The position numbers and the translations under genes are program-made. The notes below the pieces were generated by a model, which saw only the letters and a list, made by a program, of their open reading frames with translations, searched no databases and was not told the DNA's origin. Shown here one piece after another: positions 168 through 33,914 of a stretch of DNA of 33,942 nt (within the stretch, counting starts at the first letter, position 1; each line of letters begins with the position of its first letter). Source of the stretch: Desulfovibrio sp. (GTDB lineage: Bacteria; Desulfobacterota; Desulfovibrionia; Desulfovibrionales; Desulfovibrionaceae); contig JAITRF010000093.1 in NCBI GenBank assembly GCA_031288535.1, positions 1 to 33,942 on the forward strand, read 5' to 3'.

Positions 168-1643
168 TCAGGGGCTTCGACGGGAACGCGCCGCGAAAGG
201 TTCCCGTATGCCGTAGCGGGCGGTCTTTTTCACGATTGTCGAATGATTCACGCCAAGGGCCGCCGCCGCTTCCCTATAGGACGAATATGGTTTGAGCGCC
301 TCGCTCCAGTATTCCCTCTCAAAGGCGTCCATGGCCTCGCGATACCCGGCAGGAGGAGAGGAAGACCGGCTTTGCGGCGATGCGCGCATCTTCTCCGGCA
401 GATGCCCGGGCAGGATAATCGGGCCTGTGTTTATTATGGTCAGCCGCTCAAGCAAGTTTTCCAGTTCACGCACGTTGCCGGGCCAGGCGTAGTGCTCGAA
501 CAGGGCGCAGACCTGCGGGGAGAGGGTCTTTTCCTGATGATAGGCGTCATTGAAACGGGCCAGAAAATGGTCGGCCAGCGGGATTATGTCTTCGACGCGT
601 TCGCGCAGGGCGGGAATGTGCAAGGACAAAACGTTCAGACGGTAGAAGAGATCGGCCCGAAACAAACGCTCTTCCACCATTTCTTCCAAAGGCCGGTTGG
701 TGGCGGCCATGATGCGCGCATCCACCGTTATCAGACGGTTGCCGCCCAGGCGGTAGAATTCCCTGTTCTGCACAAAGCGCAGGAGCTTGACCTGAAGCGG
801 GAGAGGCATTTCTCCCACCTCGTCAAGGAACACGCTTCCCCCGGCGGCGGCCTCAAAAAGACCGGCGCGGCCCTGCCTGCGCGCCCCGGTGAACGCCCCG
901 CCCTCGTACCCGAAAAGTTCCGCTTCCAGAAGCTGCTCCGGAATGGCCCCGCAGTTGATCTTCAGGAAAGGTTTATCACGGCGCGGGCTGTTGCGGTGCA
1001 TGAAATCCGCCGCCACCTCCTTGCCTGTCCCGGATTCCCCGGTGATGAGCACAGGCGCGCCCGTGGATGCATACTCCAGAGCCTGGGTAAACACTGATCG
1101 CATCAGGGCGCTCCGCACGGTGCGGCGTTCCTCAAGAGCCGCCCGCCGGTTCATGTTCTCCAGGATGGAAGCGTAGCGGTCCGCGCTCTCTCTGGCCTTC
1201 TGCAGTTCGGTTCTCAGGCCGTAAACCTCGGACATGTCCCGCACGTTGGTCACAATGCGGATCAGCTTTCCGTCCGCGTCAAACACGGGGTTGGCGGTGT
1301 TCAAGGTGCGCTTGGCACCGTTCTGGAATTCCTGCTCGGCCGTCACCGGGCGTTTTGTTTCCACAGCCATCTGCGTGGCCGAAGGCGTGAGAAAACCCCG
1401 CGCAGCCAAATCCTGCACCCTGTGCCCCACGACGTCGGACTCCTCCGCCCCGGTTATGTTGAGATAACCGCGGTTCACCCGCAAAAGCCTGCCCGTGCCG
1501 TCCGCCACCACCAGCCCGTCTATGGAGGATTCGAACATGGCCGCATACTCGCGGTTCATGGCGCGCAGGCTCTCCAGTTCCTCTTCCAGCTCGCGCAGCC
1601 TGGACGCGCGCGGCCGGCCTGCAACGGCCCTCTTCGTTTTCAT
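168..1643 (-). CDS. PAS domain-containing sigma-54 dependent transcriptional activator
   Basis: 491 aa. Walker A GESGTGKE, GAFTGA sigma-54 contact loop, N-terminal PAS-like region, C-terminal HTH (YREAAAALGVNHSTIVKKTARYGI). Confidence 0.93.
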   Translation of the reverse strand: MKTKRAVAGRPRASRLRELEEELESLRAMNREYAAMFESSIDGLVVADGTGRLLRVNRGYLNITGAEESDVVGHRVQDLAARGFLTPSATQMAVETKRPVTAEQEFQNGAKRTLNTANPVFDADGKLIRIVTNVRDMSEVYGLRTELQKARESADRYASILENMNRRAALEERRTVRSALMRSVFTQALEYASTGAPVLITGESGTGKEVAADFMHRNSPRRDKPFLKINCGAIPEQLLEAELFGYEGGAFTGARRQGRAGLFEAAAGGSVFLDEVGEMPLPLQVKLLRFVQNREFYRLGGNRLITVDARIMAATNRPLEEMVEERLFRADLFYRLNVLSLHIPALRERVEDIIPLADHFLARFNDAYHQEKTLSPQVCALFEHYAWPGNVRELENLLERLTIINTGPIILPGHLPEKMRASPQSRSSSPPAGYREAMDAFEREYWSEALKPYSSYREAAAALGVNHSTIVKKTARYGIREPFAARSRRSP

Positions 1644-1654
1644 CAGAAATTCCT

Positions 1655-1793
1655 CTGGAGCATTTTACGCTTGAGATCCCCGCCTGACGGAAAAGCAAGC
1701 CCGCCTGCGCCAATCCCGCGAACGGCGTTACGCTTCGCTTCACACCGTCAGAGCATTTTATGGGAAAGATACTTTCAATGAGAAAATGCTCTA
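1655..1793 (-). repeat. Dispersed intergenic repeat, copy 1 (about 139 bp)
   Basis: The reverse complement (TAGAGCATTTTCTCATTGAAAGTATCTTTCCCATAAAATGCTCTGACGGTGTGAAGCGAAGCGTAACGCCGTTCGCGGGATTGGCGCAGGCGGGC...CCGTCAGGCG...CAAGCGTAAAATGCTCCAGAG) aligns closely to 21907-22040. Confidence 0.9.
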
Positions 1794-3326
1794 AAGCCGG
1801 GTCCGATCAAGAGTCCGGCAATTTACCGCTTCCGCCAGATGCACGGTCAGTATTTCCTCCTGCTCCTCAAGATCGGCAATGGTCCTGGCGATGCGCAGAA
1901 TGCGGGTATAGGCGCGGGCGGAAAGGTGCAGACCGCGCACCGCGTCGCGCATAAAAGCTTTCCCGGAGGCGTCCAGGCGGCAGTGGCGCTCCAGTTCCCG
2001 CCCGAAGAGATCGGCATTGGTCCGGCAAAGGCCCTCGGAGAACCGCTCCTTTTGCCGTGTCCGCGCCTTTTCCACGCTTGCCCGCATCTGCGCCGAAGAT
2101 CGCCCGGCCTCCTCGCTGCTCAAATCTTCATAAGGCACGGCCGGGACCTCCACGTGCAGGTCCATGCGGTCCAACAGGGGACCGGAAAGTCTGGAGCGGT
2201 AGCGCTGAATTTCGCCTTTGCCGCAGGTGCAGGTCTTGCGATTGTCGCCGAGATGTCCGCAGGGGCAGGGATTCATGGCTCCGACCAGCATGAAGGCGGC
2301 CGGATAGGTGAGGGTCTGGGCCGCCCTGGATATGGTCACGCGGCCGCTTTCCAGAGGTTGGCGCAAGGCCTCCAGAATCGGCTTGTGGAACTCCAGAAGT
2401 TCGTCCAGAAAAAGCACGCCCCGGTGGGCCAGGGAAATTTCTCCCGGCCTCGGGACAACGCCTCCTCCGACCAGCCCGGCCTGGGAAATGGTGTGATGCG
2501 GGGCGCGAAAGGGACGCTCTTCCATAATGCCCAGCCCAGGCGGCAAGGCCCCGGCCACGCTGTAGATCTTGGTGACTTCCAGGGCTTCCTCGAAGGACAG
2601 GCCGGGGAGAATGCCGGCTATGCGTTCGGCAAGCATGGTTTTCCCGCTGCCCGGAGGTCCGATGAAGAGCAAGTTGTGGCCGCCGGAGGCGGCGATCTCC
2701 ACCGCGCGCTTCGCGTGTTCCTGGCCTTTCACATCCGCGAAATCAGAGGCGGATTCGGCCTTGAGACCAAGGGAAGGCGCCGGATCGGAAAACAGACCCG
2801 GCCTTGGGCCGCCGTTCCCGGACAAGAGGGCCACGGCCTGCCCCAAGCTCTCCACGGCATACACGTCAAGGTCCCGGACCACCGCCGCCTCGCGCGCGTT
2901 GCCCACAGGGACCAGAAACCCCCGCGCCCCGGAATTCCTGGCCAGAATGGCCAAAGGCAGCACTCCGGCCACCGGCTTCACCTCTCCTGTCAGGGAGAGC
3001 TCCCCGGCCATGAAATACCCCTCCGCCGCGTTTTCCTGAAGATGTCCGGCGGCGGCGAGCAGACCGACGGCCAGGGGCAGATCGTAAGACGAGCCGCCCT
3101 TTTTGCGGTCGGCCGGGGCCAGATTCACGGTGATGCGCGCTGGAGGCAGGCGGAAATTCATGTTGCGCAGGGCGGCGAAAACGCGATCCCGCGCCTCGCG
3201 CACCGCGCCTTCGGCCAGCCCGACCATGGTGAATGCGGGCAAACCGGCGCGGGTCAGGTCCACCTCCAGATCAACGCGGAAGGCGTCCACTCCGTGCAAA
3301 GCGCCGCAGGCGACGCGGGTGATCAT
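1791..3326 (-). CDS. comM: YifB/ComM family Mg chelatase-like AAA ATPase
   Basis: 511 aa. N-terminal VDLTRAGLPAFTMVGLAEGAVREARDRVFAALRN, Walker A GPPGSGKTMLAERIAGILPGL, C-terminal SARAYTRILRIARTIADLE. Confidence 0.93.
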   Translation of the reverse strand: MITRVACGALHGVDAFRVDLEVDLTRAGLPAFTMVGLAEGAVREARDRVFAALRNMNFRLPPARITVNLAPADRKKGGSSYDLPLAVGLLAAAGHLQENAAEGYFMAGELSLTGEVKPVAGVLPLAILARNSGARGFLVPVGNAREAAVVRDLDVYAVESLGQAVALLSGNGGPRPGLFSDPAPSLGLKAESASDFADVKGQEHAKRAVEIAASGGHNLLFIGPPGSGKTMLAERIAGILPGLSFEEALEVTKIYSVAGALPPGLGIMEERPFRAPHHTISQAGLVGGGVVPRPGEISLAHRGVLFLDELLEFHKPILEALRQPLESGRVTISRAAQTLTYPAAFMLVGAMNPCPCGHLGDNRKTCTCGKGEIQRYRSRLSGPLLDRMDLHVEVPAVPYEDLSSEEAGRSSAQMRASVEKARTRQKERFSEGLCRTNADLFGRELERHCRLDASGKAFMRDAVRGLHLSARAYTRILRIARTIADLEEQEEILTVHLAEAVNCRTLDRTRL

Positions 3327-8868: not shown

Positions 8869-9356
8869 AATTTCCTCCGGGTAAGCCGAGCCGTTCCGAA
8901 GACACGGCGTTCAGCGGAAAAATAAAGGCGCCGGCCGGCAAAGGCCTCGTAAAGCGCTTCCCACTCTCCACCGCCGATACGCAGGCAATTTCGTCCCAAA
9001 ACCGCGTCGCCCACGCGCAGAACCAACTCCCCGAGCGCCGGCAGCCGGCCTTCAAAGACCAGCCAGGGACCTTCCAGGTAAAAGCGCGTCCTTTCCGGGA
9101 GCACGGTCGGCAAACCCGCGTTCTGGGATTGGACCTTGCCCCGCCATTGCCGCACCAACCCGTCCCTGACCACATAAACGTCCTCGACCGGACTTAGCTG
9201 GACGGAATGCAGATAGCGCGTCGCAAAGACGCGCCCGAGCGGCATAAGTTCTTCTCTTGCGATCCCGGCCTCGCCGGTCCTGACGACAAGGACGTCCACC
9301 GGCCAAAGCCAGAGGGCCGCAAGGCCCAGGAGCAAAAGCGCGGCATGGCGCGTCAT
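8865..9356 (-). CDS. DUF1850 domain-containing protein (TAXI-TRAP associated)
   Basis: 163 aa. R(Y)[15 protein letters not shown] motif. Positioned directly upstream of the TRAP permease with ATGA overlaps on both sides. Confidence 0.8.
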
Positions 9357-11125
9357 TTTTTCTTTTTCTGCAAAGCCGCCTGCAGGGCCAGCCCCAGAGA
9401 GCCGACGGCCGGAGCCGGATGGGGCTTGGGGAGATGTTTTTTCCAGTCTTTGTCCAAAGGCGCTTCATTTTGCGCGGCGTCTGCAGGGATGAGACCGACG
9501 CGGCGCCTCTGGCTGTCGATTTCTTTTACGCGCACCCGGATCTCGGAGCCAGGCGCGAGGTTTTCCAGGTTTCTTCTGGAAGGCGAAGAGGCCAGCGCCG
9601 CCTTGGGGAGCAGTCCGGTAATTCCGGGCGAGAGGCCGACAAAAATGCCGTAGGGGGAATGCCGCTCCACTGTTCCGCTTATCTCGGCGTCCACAGGCAG
9701 CAACTCCCGCACGTTGTCCCAGGGATTGCCGACGGCGTCGCGCAGGCTTAGCGATACGCGGCGCTTGTCCGGATCCACTTCCTTGATCTTCACTGAAACC
9801 GTATCGCCCGGCGCAAGCACATCCTCCACCTTCAGGACGCGTTTTTCGTGGGAAAGCTCCGAGACGTGCACCAGTCCCTCTATGCCGGGAAAAATCTCCA
9901 CAAAGGCCCCGAAGGCCGCAAGGCGCGTGACCCTGCCGCCGACCATGTCTCCGGGCGACAGGCATCGCGCCGCTTCCACCCAGGGATCGTCCGTGACCTG
10001 ACGCAAGGAGAGGGAGATACGCGGGGGTTTTTTGTCCTGCTCGATCTCAAGCACTTTGACGCGCACGCGCTCTCCGATGCTCAGGGCCTCGTCCGCCTGC
10101 CCCACCCTTGACCAGGAAAGCTCGGACAAATGCGCGAGCCCCTCCACCCCCGGCGCCAGTTCCAGAAAAACGCCGAAAGGGGCGAAGCGCGTCGCCACCG
10201 CTTCGCGCACGTCGCCGACCTGCAGAGAGGCCAGCACAGCCTCCCGGTTCTCGGCATATTCGCGCTCAAGCAGAGAACGGCGGGAAACGACGATGTTGCG
10301 CCCGCTCTTTTCCAGGCGGGTGATCAGGAAGGGATAAATTTTACCGACGTGCGATTCGGGGTCCTGCGCCGGGTGCAGGTCTATCTGGCTCAGCGGACAG
10401 AAGGCGCGCCGCTTCATTATGTCCACCGCGTATCCGCCCTTGACGAGCCCGGTCACCTTGCCCTCCACCGGGAGCCCGCTTTCGCGCGCTTCGCGCAGGG
10501 CGTTCAGACTGCCGGCCCCGCGCAAAATGCGCGAGAGGCGGACTTCCTGGGGACTCACGTTGACCACGTACAAATCAAGCACGTCCCCGACCGCGCAGAC
10601 AAGCTCCCCGTCCCTTTCCAGCTCCTCCCGTTCCACAATGCCGTCCACCTTGTCCCCGGTGCTTACGAAGACCGTATCTCCGGTGACGGCCACAACACGC
10701 ACGCTGACCCTCCGGCCCTGTTCAAGCGCCGGCCCGGGCGCGCCGTGCTCCTCCTGCCTCTCCAGCATCTCCGCAAAGGATAATTCCTCGTTTTCCGGCG
10801 CCTCCGGCACGGAAGAAATACCTCCTCCCTCTCCCGCCAAGTCTGAAACCGCCCCGCTCTCCGGCAAATCCGAAGCCGCTCCGCTCTCCGGCAAGTCCGA
10901 AGCCGCCCCGCTCTCCGGCAAATCCGAAGCTGCTCCGCTCTCCGGCAAGTCCGAAGCCGCTCCACCTTCCCCCGCCAAGCCTGAAACAGCGCCGCCTTCC
11001 CCCGCCAAATCCGGAGCCACGCCGCCCTCCCCAGCCGGGTCCGACGGGGGACAGTCTTCCTTCTCCGGGCCGGAAGGGACGCCGCCTTCCTCTGCCGGGG
11101 CCAAGGGTTCGATCCGTAGATTCAT
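9353..11125 (-). CDS. S1 RNA-binding domain protein (ribosomal protein S1-like) with repetitive acidic N-terminus
   Basis: 590 aa. Several S1 repeats (e.g. [34 protein letters not shown]...[19 protein letters not shown]). N-terminal [14 protein letters not shown] repeats. RBS AAGGAGA upstream on the minus strand. Confidence 0.88.
10857..10964 (-). repeat. In-frame 27-bp tandem repeat, 4 units, encoding ESGAASDLP
   Basis: Units CTCTCCGGCAA(A/G)TCCGAAGC(C/T)GC(T/C)CC(G/A) start at 10857, 10884, 10911 and 10938. More degenerate repeats flank them. Confidence 0.9.
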
Positions 11126-20901: not shown

Positions 20902-21909
20902 ATGACGACATATTCCTCCATAGGCGGATACGGTTTCGCCGTTCCGCCGAAAGTGCGCGAAAACTCTTATTTCACGGAAAAAACCGGCGTGAGCGAAGAA
21001 TGGATAGTCTCGCGCACCGGCATATCCGCAAGACGTGTGCTTGAAAACGGGCAGACGGGAAGCGATCTCGCAAAGGACGCCGCCCTGATGGCTCTAGAGG
21101 ACTGCGGGCGCGGGGCAACGGAAGTGACCCACATCCTCTACGCGACCTGCACCCCGGATTCCATGTGCCCGTCCACGGCCTGCGCGCTTGCGCACAAACT
21201 GGGCATAAAAGGCGTTATGGCGGTGGACGTGAACGCGGCCTGCTCCGGGTTCATCAACTGCCTTGAACTGGCGGACGGGCTCGCGGCGCGCGATCCCCTT
21301 GCCTGCGTGCTTCTGGTGGCCGCCGAAAGCCTTTTCCATCGCTGCAATGTCGAAGACGTCTCCACGGCCGTGCTTTTCGGGGACGGAGCCGGAGCCGTGG
21401 TCGTCGAAGGCCGGCAGGCCGCCGCCACCGCGCACCGGCTCCCCAAAGCCGACCTGGTGGACGTGCTGCTCGGTTCGGACGGCAGCCAGGGAAACCTCCT
21501 GCTCATGGACGGGGGCTTCGCGTCCCTGCCGTATAAACTCGGCGAGCCGGTCGGTCCGGAGTATTTCATCCGCATGAACGGAGGGCTGGTGTTCAAAAAC
21601 GCCGTGCGCCGCCTTGCGGAGAGTTGCGCGGAGATCCTCAAGCGCAACGGATACGGAGTGGAACAGGTCGACCTCTTTGTCCCGCATCAGGCCAACCTGC
21701 GCATCATCGAGGCCGTGGGGTCGAGACTGGGCATAGAGAAAGAGAAGGTGTTCCTCAACGTACACAAATACGGCAACACTTCGGCGGCCTCCGTGCCCAT
21801 CGCCCTGGGCGAGGCCCTGCGTGAAGGGCGCATCCGCGAAGGAATGCTGGTGCTGGTCAGCACCTTCGGCGGAGGACTGACCTGGGGTTCGGCCCTGTTG
21901 AAATTTTAG
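20902..21909 (+). CDS. fabH: 3-oxoacyl-ACP synthase III
   Basis: YFTEKTGVSEEWIVSRTGI, VDVNAACSGFINCLELA, FVPHQANLRIIEAVGSRLG, NTSAASVPIAL. Confidence 0.96.
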   Translation: MTTYSSIGGYGFAVPPKVRENSYFTEKTGVSEEWIVSRTGISARRVLENGQTGSDLAKDAALMALEDCGRGATEVTHILYATCTPDSMCPSTACALAHKLGIKGVMAVDVNAACSGFINCLELADGLAARDPLACVLLVAAESLFHRCNVEDVSTAVLFGDGAGAVVVEGRQAAATAHRLPKADLVDVLLGSDGSQGNLLLMDGGFASLPYKLGEPVGPEYFIRMNGGLVFKNAVRRLAESCAEILKRNGYGVEQVDLFVPHQANLRIIEAVGSRLGIEKEKVFLNVHKYGNTSAASVPIALGEALREGRIREGMLVLVSTFGGGLTWGSALLKF

Positions 21910-22040
21910 GGCATTTTGTCAGCGAAAGTATCTTTCCGATAGAATGCCCCGACGGTGTGAAGCGAAGCGTAACACCGTTCGCTGGATTGGCGCAGGCGGG
22001 CTGCGCCCGCCGTCAGGCGACAAGCGCAAAATGCCAGAGC
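21907..22040 (+). repeat. Dispersed intergenic repeat, copy 2
   Basis: TAGGGCATTTTGTCAGCGAAAGTATCTTTCCGATAGAATGCCCCGACGGTGTGAAGCGAAGCGTAACACCGTTCGCTGGATTGGCGCAGGCGGGC...CCGTCAGGCGACAAGCGCAAAATGCCAGAG, closely similar to the reverse complement of 1655-1793. Confidence 0.9.
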
Positions 22041-22068
22041 AGTTTAACTTTGAAATTTGGACCGCTCT

Positions 22069-22155
22069 GCAAGGATTTGTTCGCAAATCCCTGCCGCGAA
22101 ATGCTTGCAGGCGAGCTTCTCTCGCCGTTAAGCAAGCATTTCAAGCGTAAAATGC
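22069..22155 (+). repeat. Hairpin-chain repeat module (module B)
   Basis: Hairpin GCAAGGATTTG-TTCG-CAAATCCCTGC (22069-22094), then nested hairpin GAAATGCTTGC..GGCGAG-CTTCT-CTCGCC..GCAAGCATTTC (22098-22142), then CAAGCGTAAAATGC. Related sequence at 23409-23458 and 11308-11360. Confidence 0.75.
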
Positions 22156-22215
22156 CTATAGAGAACGGATCAACTTTGAAAATACGCTCTGTGCGGAACA
22201 CATGCAGGAAGGAAA

Positions 22216-33827: not shown

Positions 33828-33914
33828 TTCCATTTTCAGATCAAAAATGTCCTCATTTTTGATCTGAAAATGGAAAGCGTGACAGGATGTCACGCCGAAA
33901 TGCGAAGCATTTCG
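33828..33914. repeat. Chain of perfect inverted repeats downstream of lptE
   Basis: 22-bp arms TTCCATTTTCAGATCAAAAATG-TCCT-CATTTTTGATCTGAAAATGGAA (33828-33875), GCGTGACA-GGA-TGTCACGC (33877-33895), CGAAATGC-GAA-GCATTTCG (33896-33914). Confidence 0.88.

What the first reader, a model, noticed from the sequence alone, without database searches (positions are those of the whole stretch)
1655..1793. Intergenic repeat whose boundary supplies the stop codon of the upstream gene (with copy at 21907-22040)
Two ~135-bp copies lie 20 kb apart in opposite orientation. In each, the element starts exactly at the TAG stop of the upstream gene: comM ...GGCTT-TAG-AGCATTTT and fabH ...AAATTT-TAG-GGCATTTT. Both share an internal GAAAGTATCTTTC near-palindrome, a GCATTTT/AAAATGC-type terminal hairpin, and a CAAGCG(T/C)AAAATGC end. 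Sharing the stop codon position suggests a small non-autonomous element that targets gene ends, or a multi-copy terminator cassette. I do not recognise a named family.
Basis: partly seen in the sequence, partly recalled or inferred. Interest (0 to 1): 0.75.

Follow-up and report, generated by a model that had tools for sequence, protein, structure and literature searches.

The report
Tiny transposon that rebuilds stop codons
The repeat is one of about 40 copies of a 138-bp non-autonomous transposon in a Desulfovibrio genome; it inserts at TA, and because its first base is G, landing in a gene's TAA or TAG stop codon simply rebuilds a TAG stop, which about a fifth of the sampled tips of this and related elements in this genome have done.

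Summary
The two window copies (81% identical) belong to a ~138-bp family with about 40 near-complete copies in this 2.83-Mb draft genome. Best explanation: a MITE mobilised by an IS630/Tc1-type transposase. It has TA at both ends, a tip (TA|GAGCATTTT) matching the genome's only detected IS630-type element, three hairpins, and a YTAR target. The stop-codon coincidence follows: the tip's first base is G, so insertion at the TA of a TAA or TAG stop leaves TAG at the native protein end. In this family alone 5 of 37 tips do this (comM, fabH, hbd, rnc, pal), weakly above chance. Pooled with sister families sharing the IS630 tip, 29 of 141 sampled tips coincide exactly with a stop (expected 6.6; no other offset exceeds 2). 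Two congeners repeat it (13/38, 10/31); another genus does not (1/19). fabH and grpE have element-free orthologues ending at the same codon; pal carries different elements on its stop in three species. It is not a terminator cassette (no U-tract) and not stop-specific. New here: MITE tips used as stop codons genome-wide. Whether targeting or selection causes the excess is open.

The parts
1656..1793 (-). MITE copy 1 (family A), left tip TA|GAGCATTTT at 1793, right tip decayed (TGCTCCA for consensus TGCTATA)
1791..1793 (-). TAG stop codon of comM formed by target TA plus the element's first base G
1748..1792 (-). Hairpin 1: left terminal inverted repeat and its partner arm, loop end GAAAGTATCTTTC
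21907..22034 (+). MITE copy 2 (family A), left tip TA|GGGCATTTT; right tip ends AAAATGC, outer TA lost
21907..21909 (+). TAG stop codon of fabH formed by target TA plus the element's first base G; the same codon position is TAG in G008 and TAA in G005, without the element
22035..22160 (+). Second, different element of the IS630-tip group (CAGAGCAGTTTAACTTTGAAA ... AAGCGTAAAATGCCTATA), head to tail with copy 2
22159..22191 (+). Decayed left tip of a third element (TAGAGAACGGATCAACTTTGAAAATACGCTCTG) just upstream of fabG
   Evidence: sequence inspection only
1791..3326 (-). comM (YifB/ComM family), upstream gene of copy 1
20902..21909 (+). fabH, upstream gene of copy 2

Best explanation
A family of 138-bp MITEs (non-autonomous DNA transposons) moved in trans by an IS630/Tc1-type transposase. 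The element inserts at TA within YTAR, duplicating the TA. Its left tip, like the tips of its sister families, reads TA|G, so insertion at the TA of a TAA or TAG stop codon gives TA|G = TAG: the upstream protein keeps its native end and the insertion is silent. comM and fabH in the window are two such events. Shown: copy number, tips, target consensus, exact coincidence with stops of full-length genes, element-free orthologues. Inferred: mobilisation in trans, and that the excess at stop codons reflects selection (safe landing sites) rather than extra target specificity.
For: About 40 near full-length dispersed copies. TA at both ends; the left tip matches 17 of the first 21 bases of the IS630-type element's inverted repeats TAGAGCATTTTAACTTTGAAA, which flank the only DDE_3 gene found in this genome. 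223 tips of the IS-like consensus genome-wide against 1 for the reversed-pattern control. Target YTAR in 15 of 16 intact sites. Exact stop overlap in 29 of 141 tips, expected 6.6, P about 2e-11, or about 5e-5 with the most generous background. Coding frames that reach a tip: 29 end at its TAG, 3 in the other two frames. Replicated in G004 (13/38) and G008 (10/31). Pfam models of the affected genes run to or nearly to the C-terminus: GrpE, LpxL-type acyltransferase, FlgH, FliP, P-II, CusF, FabH. Element-free orthologues: fabH TTTTAGG in G008 and TTTTAAG in G005; grpE in G008 AACCTTAGGGAATTTTTAATG.
Against: For family A alone the stop excess is weak (5 of 37; P = 0.03, or 0.27 with the generous background). 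Its right tip (TATAGCATTTTGCGCTTGAGA) matches the IS less well. Only one IS630-type transposase gene was found, and movement in trans is by inference. The other genus G030, with 252 similar tips, shows only 1 of 19 at stops, so the excess does not follow from tip and target alone. comM has no clean empty site in G008: it ends CTT TAT TGA there and unrelated DNA follows.
Confidence: 0.88

Rival explanations
1. A transcription-terminator or mRNA-3'-end cassette that genes have recruited, so the placement at stop codons is functional.
For: Three strong hairpins (-63.8 kcal/mol, z = -6.8); paired positions change half as often as unpaired ones (0.037 against 0.077); several genes end just before or at the element.
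Against: No U-tract follows any hairpin; the terminator scan found only a 5-pair stem inside copy 1 and none in copy 2. Genes face either end with their 5' or 3' side in similar numbers. Compensatory changes are few (8 cells).
Confidence: 0.05
2. The transposase or an accessory factor recognises stop-codon context (for example gene ends or translation termination), i.e. real stop targeting beyond YTAR.
For: Stop sites are hit about 4-5 times more often than their share of non-coding YTAR sites, and the same pal stop carries three different elements in three species.
Against: Most copies are not at stops; the target logo shows only YTAR with a T-rich -2 position; G030 shows no excess. Selection against disruptive insertions explains an excess without new specificity.
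Confidence: 0.1
3. Chance: two copies of an ordinary intergenic repeat happen to abut stop codons.
For: For family A alone, 5 of 37 against 1.7-3.5 expected is barely above chance.
Against: The pooled data show a single-position peak of 31 at offset 0 (29 after removing a duplicate and one dubious frame) against at most 2 at any other offset, replicated in two other genomes.
Confidence: 0.03

Closest known systems
RUP (repeat unit of pneumococcus), thought to be mobilised by IS630-Spn1
   Same: About 107 bp, intergenic, TA duplication, inverted repeats like those of a resident IS630-type element (PMC2229807, PMC3049150)
   Different: No sequence relation tested; RUP is AT-rich, and the passages read report no recurrent use of its tip as a gene's stop codon
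Correia/NEMIS and ERIC (RU-1) elements; MITEPlu5 of Photorhabdus
   Same: Short TA-flanked MITEs with strong hairpins; MITEPlu5 is linked to IS630-type ends (PMC2229807, PMC6267812)
   Different: An RU-1 insertion at a gene end is described as removing the normal stop and extending the protein (PMC2759123); here the left tip keeps the protein end
IS630 (target CTAG) and ISY100 (target TA)
   Same: TA duplication, Tc1/mariner-type cut and paste (PMC2170065; the CTAG preference is cited there from Tenzen and co-workers). YTAR found here includes CTAG
   Different: Those are autonomous; the target here is the broader YTAR

Membership tests
MITE of the IS630/Tc1-mariner group | Short, no transposase gene, many dispersed copies | tested here: met
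   138 bp, about 40 near full-length copies
MITE of the IS630/Tc1-mariner group | Terminal inverted repeats matching a resident autonomous element | tested here: met
   Left tip matches 17 of 21 bases of the IS630-type repeats in L045; right tip weaker; sister family C matches closely at both ends
MITE of the IS630/Tc1-mariner group | TA target, duplicated on insertion | tested here: met
   TA at both ends in 16 intact A copies; single TA at element-free grpE and fabH orthologous sites. No strain-level empty site for an intact A copy
MITE of the IS630/Tc1-mariner group | Mobilisation in trans by the transposase | not testable with these tools
   Needs a transposition or binding assay
Intrinsic terminator cassette | G+C-rich stem followed by a run of U | tested here: not met
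Known Rfam RNA family | Match to a covariance model | tested here: not met
   No match up to E = 1 in window 1500-2000
RUP, Correia or ERIC themselves | Sequence homology to those families | not tested
   No direct alignment was made; only features from papers were compared

The most novel reading that the evidence does not exclude
In this Desulfovibrio genus, IS630-group MITEs use stop codons as a safe niche: a YTAR target plus a TA|G tip makes TAA/TAG stops recurrent silent landing sites, so a large share of tips (roughly 20-35% of those sampled, possibly of the order of a hundred genes in the most loaded genome) now supply TAG stops, with different elements colonising the same stop in different species, beyond what target choice alone predicts.
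Probability: 0.45. Interest if true: 0.6.

Novelty: new variant of a known kind. Interest (0 to 1): 0.5.

Why it matters
It suggests how a gene-dense bacterial genome can carry hundreds of transposon tips with little harm: the element's end sequence turns a stop codon into a neutral landing site. It gives a simple testable rule (YTAR target, first base G) that can be checked in other IS630-type MITEs, it can convert TAA stops to TAG, and it warns annotators that the last codon of many genes belongs to a mobile element.

Tried and rejected
Terminator cassette: no U-tract. Known RNA family: no Rfam match. Phage or plasmid carriage: no match in either collection. Pattern scan of named genomes for the element core: none, own genome possibly excluded. 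Right-end stops: long frames entering the right end of family A copies looked like shadow frames, and no scored gene ended there, as expected because the right tip reads TA|T. L033 was excluded from the stop count (doubtful frame). The replicate in another genus, G030, did not show the excess.

Full report
OBSERVATION. Copy 1 is 1793-1656 on the minus strand, copy 2 is 21907-22034 on the plus strand; they are 81% identical over 149 columns. In both, the TAG stop of the upstream gene (comM, fabH; Pfam identities) is formed by the first three bases of the repeat.

COPY NUMBER AND ANATOMY. A search of the own genome (G000, 2.83 Mb, 153 contigs) with copy 1 gives 48 matches, about 40 of them near full length, plus partial modules. 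Extracted and aligned, they have a median identity of 96% to the consensus TAGAGCATTTTGTCATTGAAAGTATCTTTCCGATAAAATGCTCTGACGGTGTGAAGCGAAGCGTAACACCGTCCGCGAGATTGGCGCAGGCGGGCTGCGCCCGCCGTCAAGCGACAATCTCAAGCGCAAAATGCTATA. The left end is TA|GAGCATTTT, the right end AAAATGCTA|TA. The RNA fold has three hairpins (-63.8 kcal/mol, z = -6.8); paired positions change about half as often as unpaired ones, with few compensatory changes. Rfam has nothing; phage and plasmid collections have nothing.

PARTNER TRANSPOSON. The only DDE_3 (IS630-type) transposase gene found in the genome lies in L045, a complete element with two overlapping frames (probably joined by -1 frameshifting; inferred) and inverted repeats TAGAGCATTTTAACTTTGAAA at both ends. 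The MITE's left tip agrees with it at 17 of 21 positions. A pattern built on this tip finds 223 tips genome-wide against 1 for the reversed control; many belong to a ~150-bp sister family ('C': TAGAGCAATTTCACTTTGAAATTG ... TCAAAGTTAAAGTGCTCTA). The tip is common across the genus and in some other genera of the family. Family A itself has matches in most congeners and in G022 and G025. The nearest named records are 'MAG: Desulfovibrio sp.' isolates Nc350_bin8 and Hs463_bin41; the habitat is not stated in those titles, and a termite gut is only my guess.

TARGET. In the 16 family A copies with both tips intact, joining the flanks gives YTAR in 15. Upstream of the TA is C or T in 26 of 29 A tips and 74 of 81 C-type tips; downstream is A or G in 22 of 23. 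This fits the IS630/Tc1 rule of TA duplication; ISY100 inserts at TA, and the CTAG preference of IS630 is cited in the same paper (PMC2170065).

WHY THE STOP CODON. After the TA the element begins with G. Insertion at the TA of a TAA or TAG stop therefore leaves TAG and the protein keeps its native end. I tested this with a codon-usage gene caller trained on the window. Family A: 5 of 37 tips are the stop of a real gene (comM, fabH, hbd, rnc, pal). C-type tips: 24 of 104 after removing a duplicate. The distance from gene end to tip has one peak, at exactly 0; no other distance has more than two cases. Of coding frames that reach a tip, 29 stop at its TAG and 3 run on in the other frames. Against a background of 434 kb of this genome, where stop-codon YTARs are 9.4% of non-coding YTARs (4.7% per tip, since only one of two tips faces the gene), 6.6 of 141 are expected (P about 2e-11); with the full 9.4% the P is about 5e-5. 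Family A alone is only weakly in excess (P = 0.03 or 0.27).

NATIVE ENDS. Pfam models for the affected genes run to or nearly to their last residue: GrpE 165/165, lipid A acyltransferase 295/295, FlgH 172/172, CusF 72/72, FliP 191/191, P-II 102/102, FabH 89/90. Orthologues without the element stop at the same codon: fabH ends TTT TAG in G008 and TTT TAA in G005; grpE in G008 reads AACCTTAGGGAATTTTTAATG with no insert; hbd and pal end TAG without an element in G005. pal carries family A here, family C in G008 and another element in G004, all at its stop; hbd carries A here and an unrelated repeat in G008. comM is less clean: G008 has CTT TAT TGA followed by unrelated DNA.

REPLICATION AND LIMIT. 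In G004 13 of 38 tips and in G008 10 of 31 tips are exact stops; these samples were taken from loci of perfect tip matches and so favour intact TAG. In G030, another genus with 252 similar tips, only 1 of 19 is. So tip and target make stop insertions possible; the excess in this genus needs something more, most simply selection against other intergenic insertions. That is not shown.

COMPARISON. It works like RUP, Correia, ERIC and MITEPlu5: short, TA-flanked, hairpin-rich, with IS630-type ends where known (PMC2229807, PMC3049150, PMC6267812). The published case I found of an ERIC/RU-1 unit at a gene end removed the stop and lengthened the protein (PMC2759123). I found no report of MITE tips serving as stop codons on this scale, but the library is partial.

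CAVEATS. Draft metagenome assembly; simple gene caller; some elements counted at both ends; no strain-level comparison; movement in trans is inferred.

Noticed in passing
window 22035-22191: The fabH-fabG intergenic region is a head-to-tail array of three different IS630-tip elements, each apparently inserted at the previous one's terminal TA
   Followed up: partly
window 1784-1755 (minus) and 21916-21945 (plus): The family consensus contains a sigma-70-like promoter (TTGTCA, 18 nt, TAAAAT) reading through the element toward the downstream side
   Followed up: no
window 33828-33875: Perfect 22-nt inverted repeat (TTCCATTTTCAGATCAAAAATG); a very similar palindrome (CCAGATCAAAAATG...CATTTTTGATCTGG) forms the altered end of rnc in G008 (L097), so it may be another repeat family
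   Followed up: no
window 10834-10968: Tandem 27-nt repeats inside the coding sequence 9353-11125 (minus)
   Followed up: no
L045:1003-1150: Degenerate GTTGTGCTAGTG-type tandem repeat next to the right end of the IS630-type element, encoding a Thr/Ser-rich tail of the neighbouring gene
   Followed up: no
L043 (just downstream of its family A copy) and the end of L010: Hairpin 1 alone occurs as a separate ~44-bp TA-flanked unit, and the last ~62 bp occur alone or in tandem, so the element is modular
   Followed up: partly
G008 tips: Many tips in G008 have changed from TAGAGC to CAGAGC, which could be used to test whether tips that serve as stops are kept by selection
   Followed up: no
L098 (hbd in G008) and flanks of L041: Another repeat family starting about TAGTACGCTGTAACA also sits at a stop codon (hbd in G008)
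   Followed up: no
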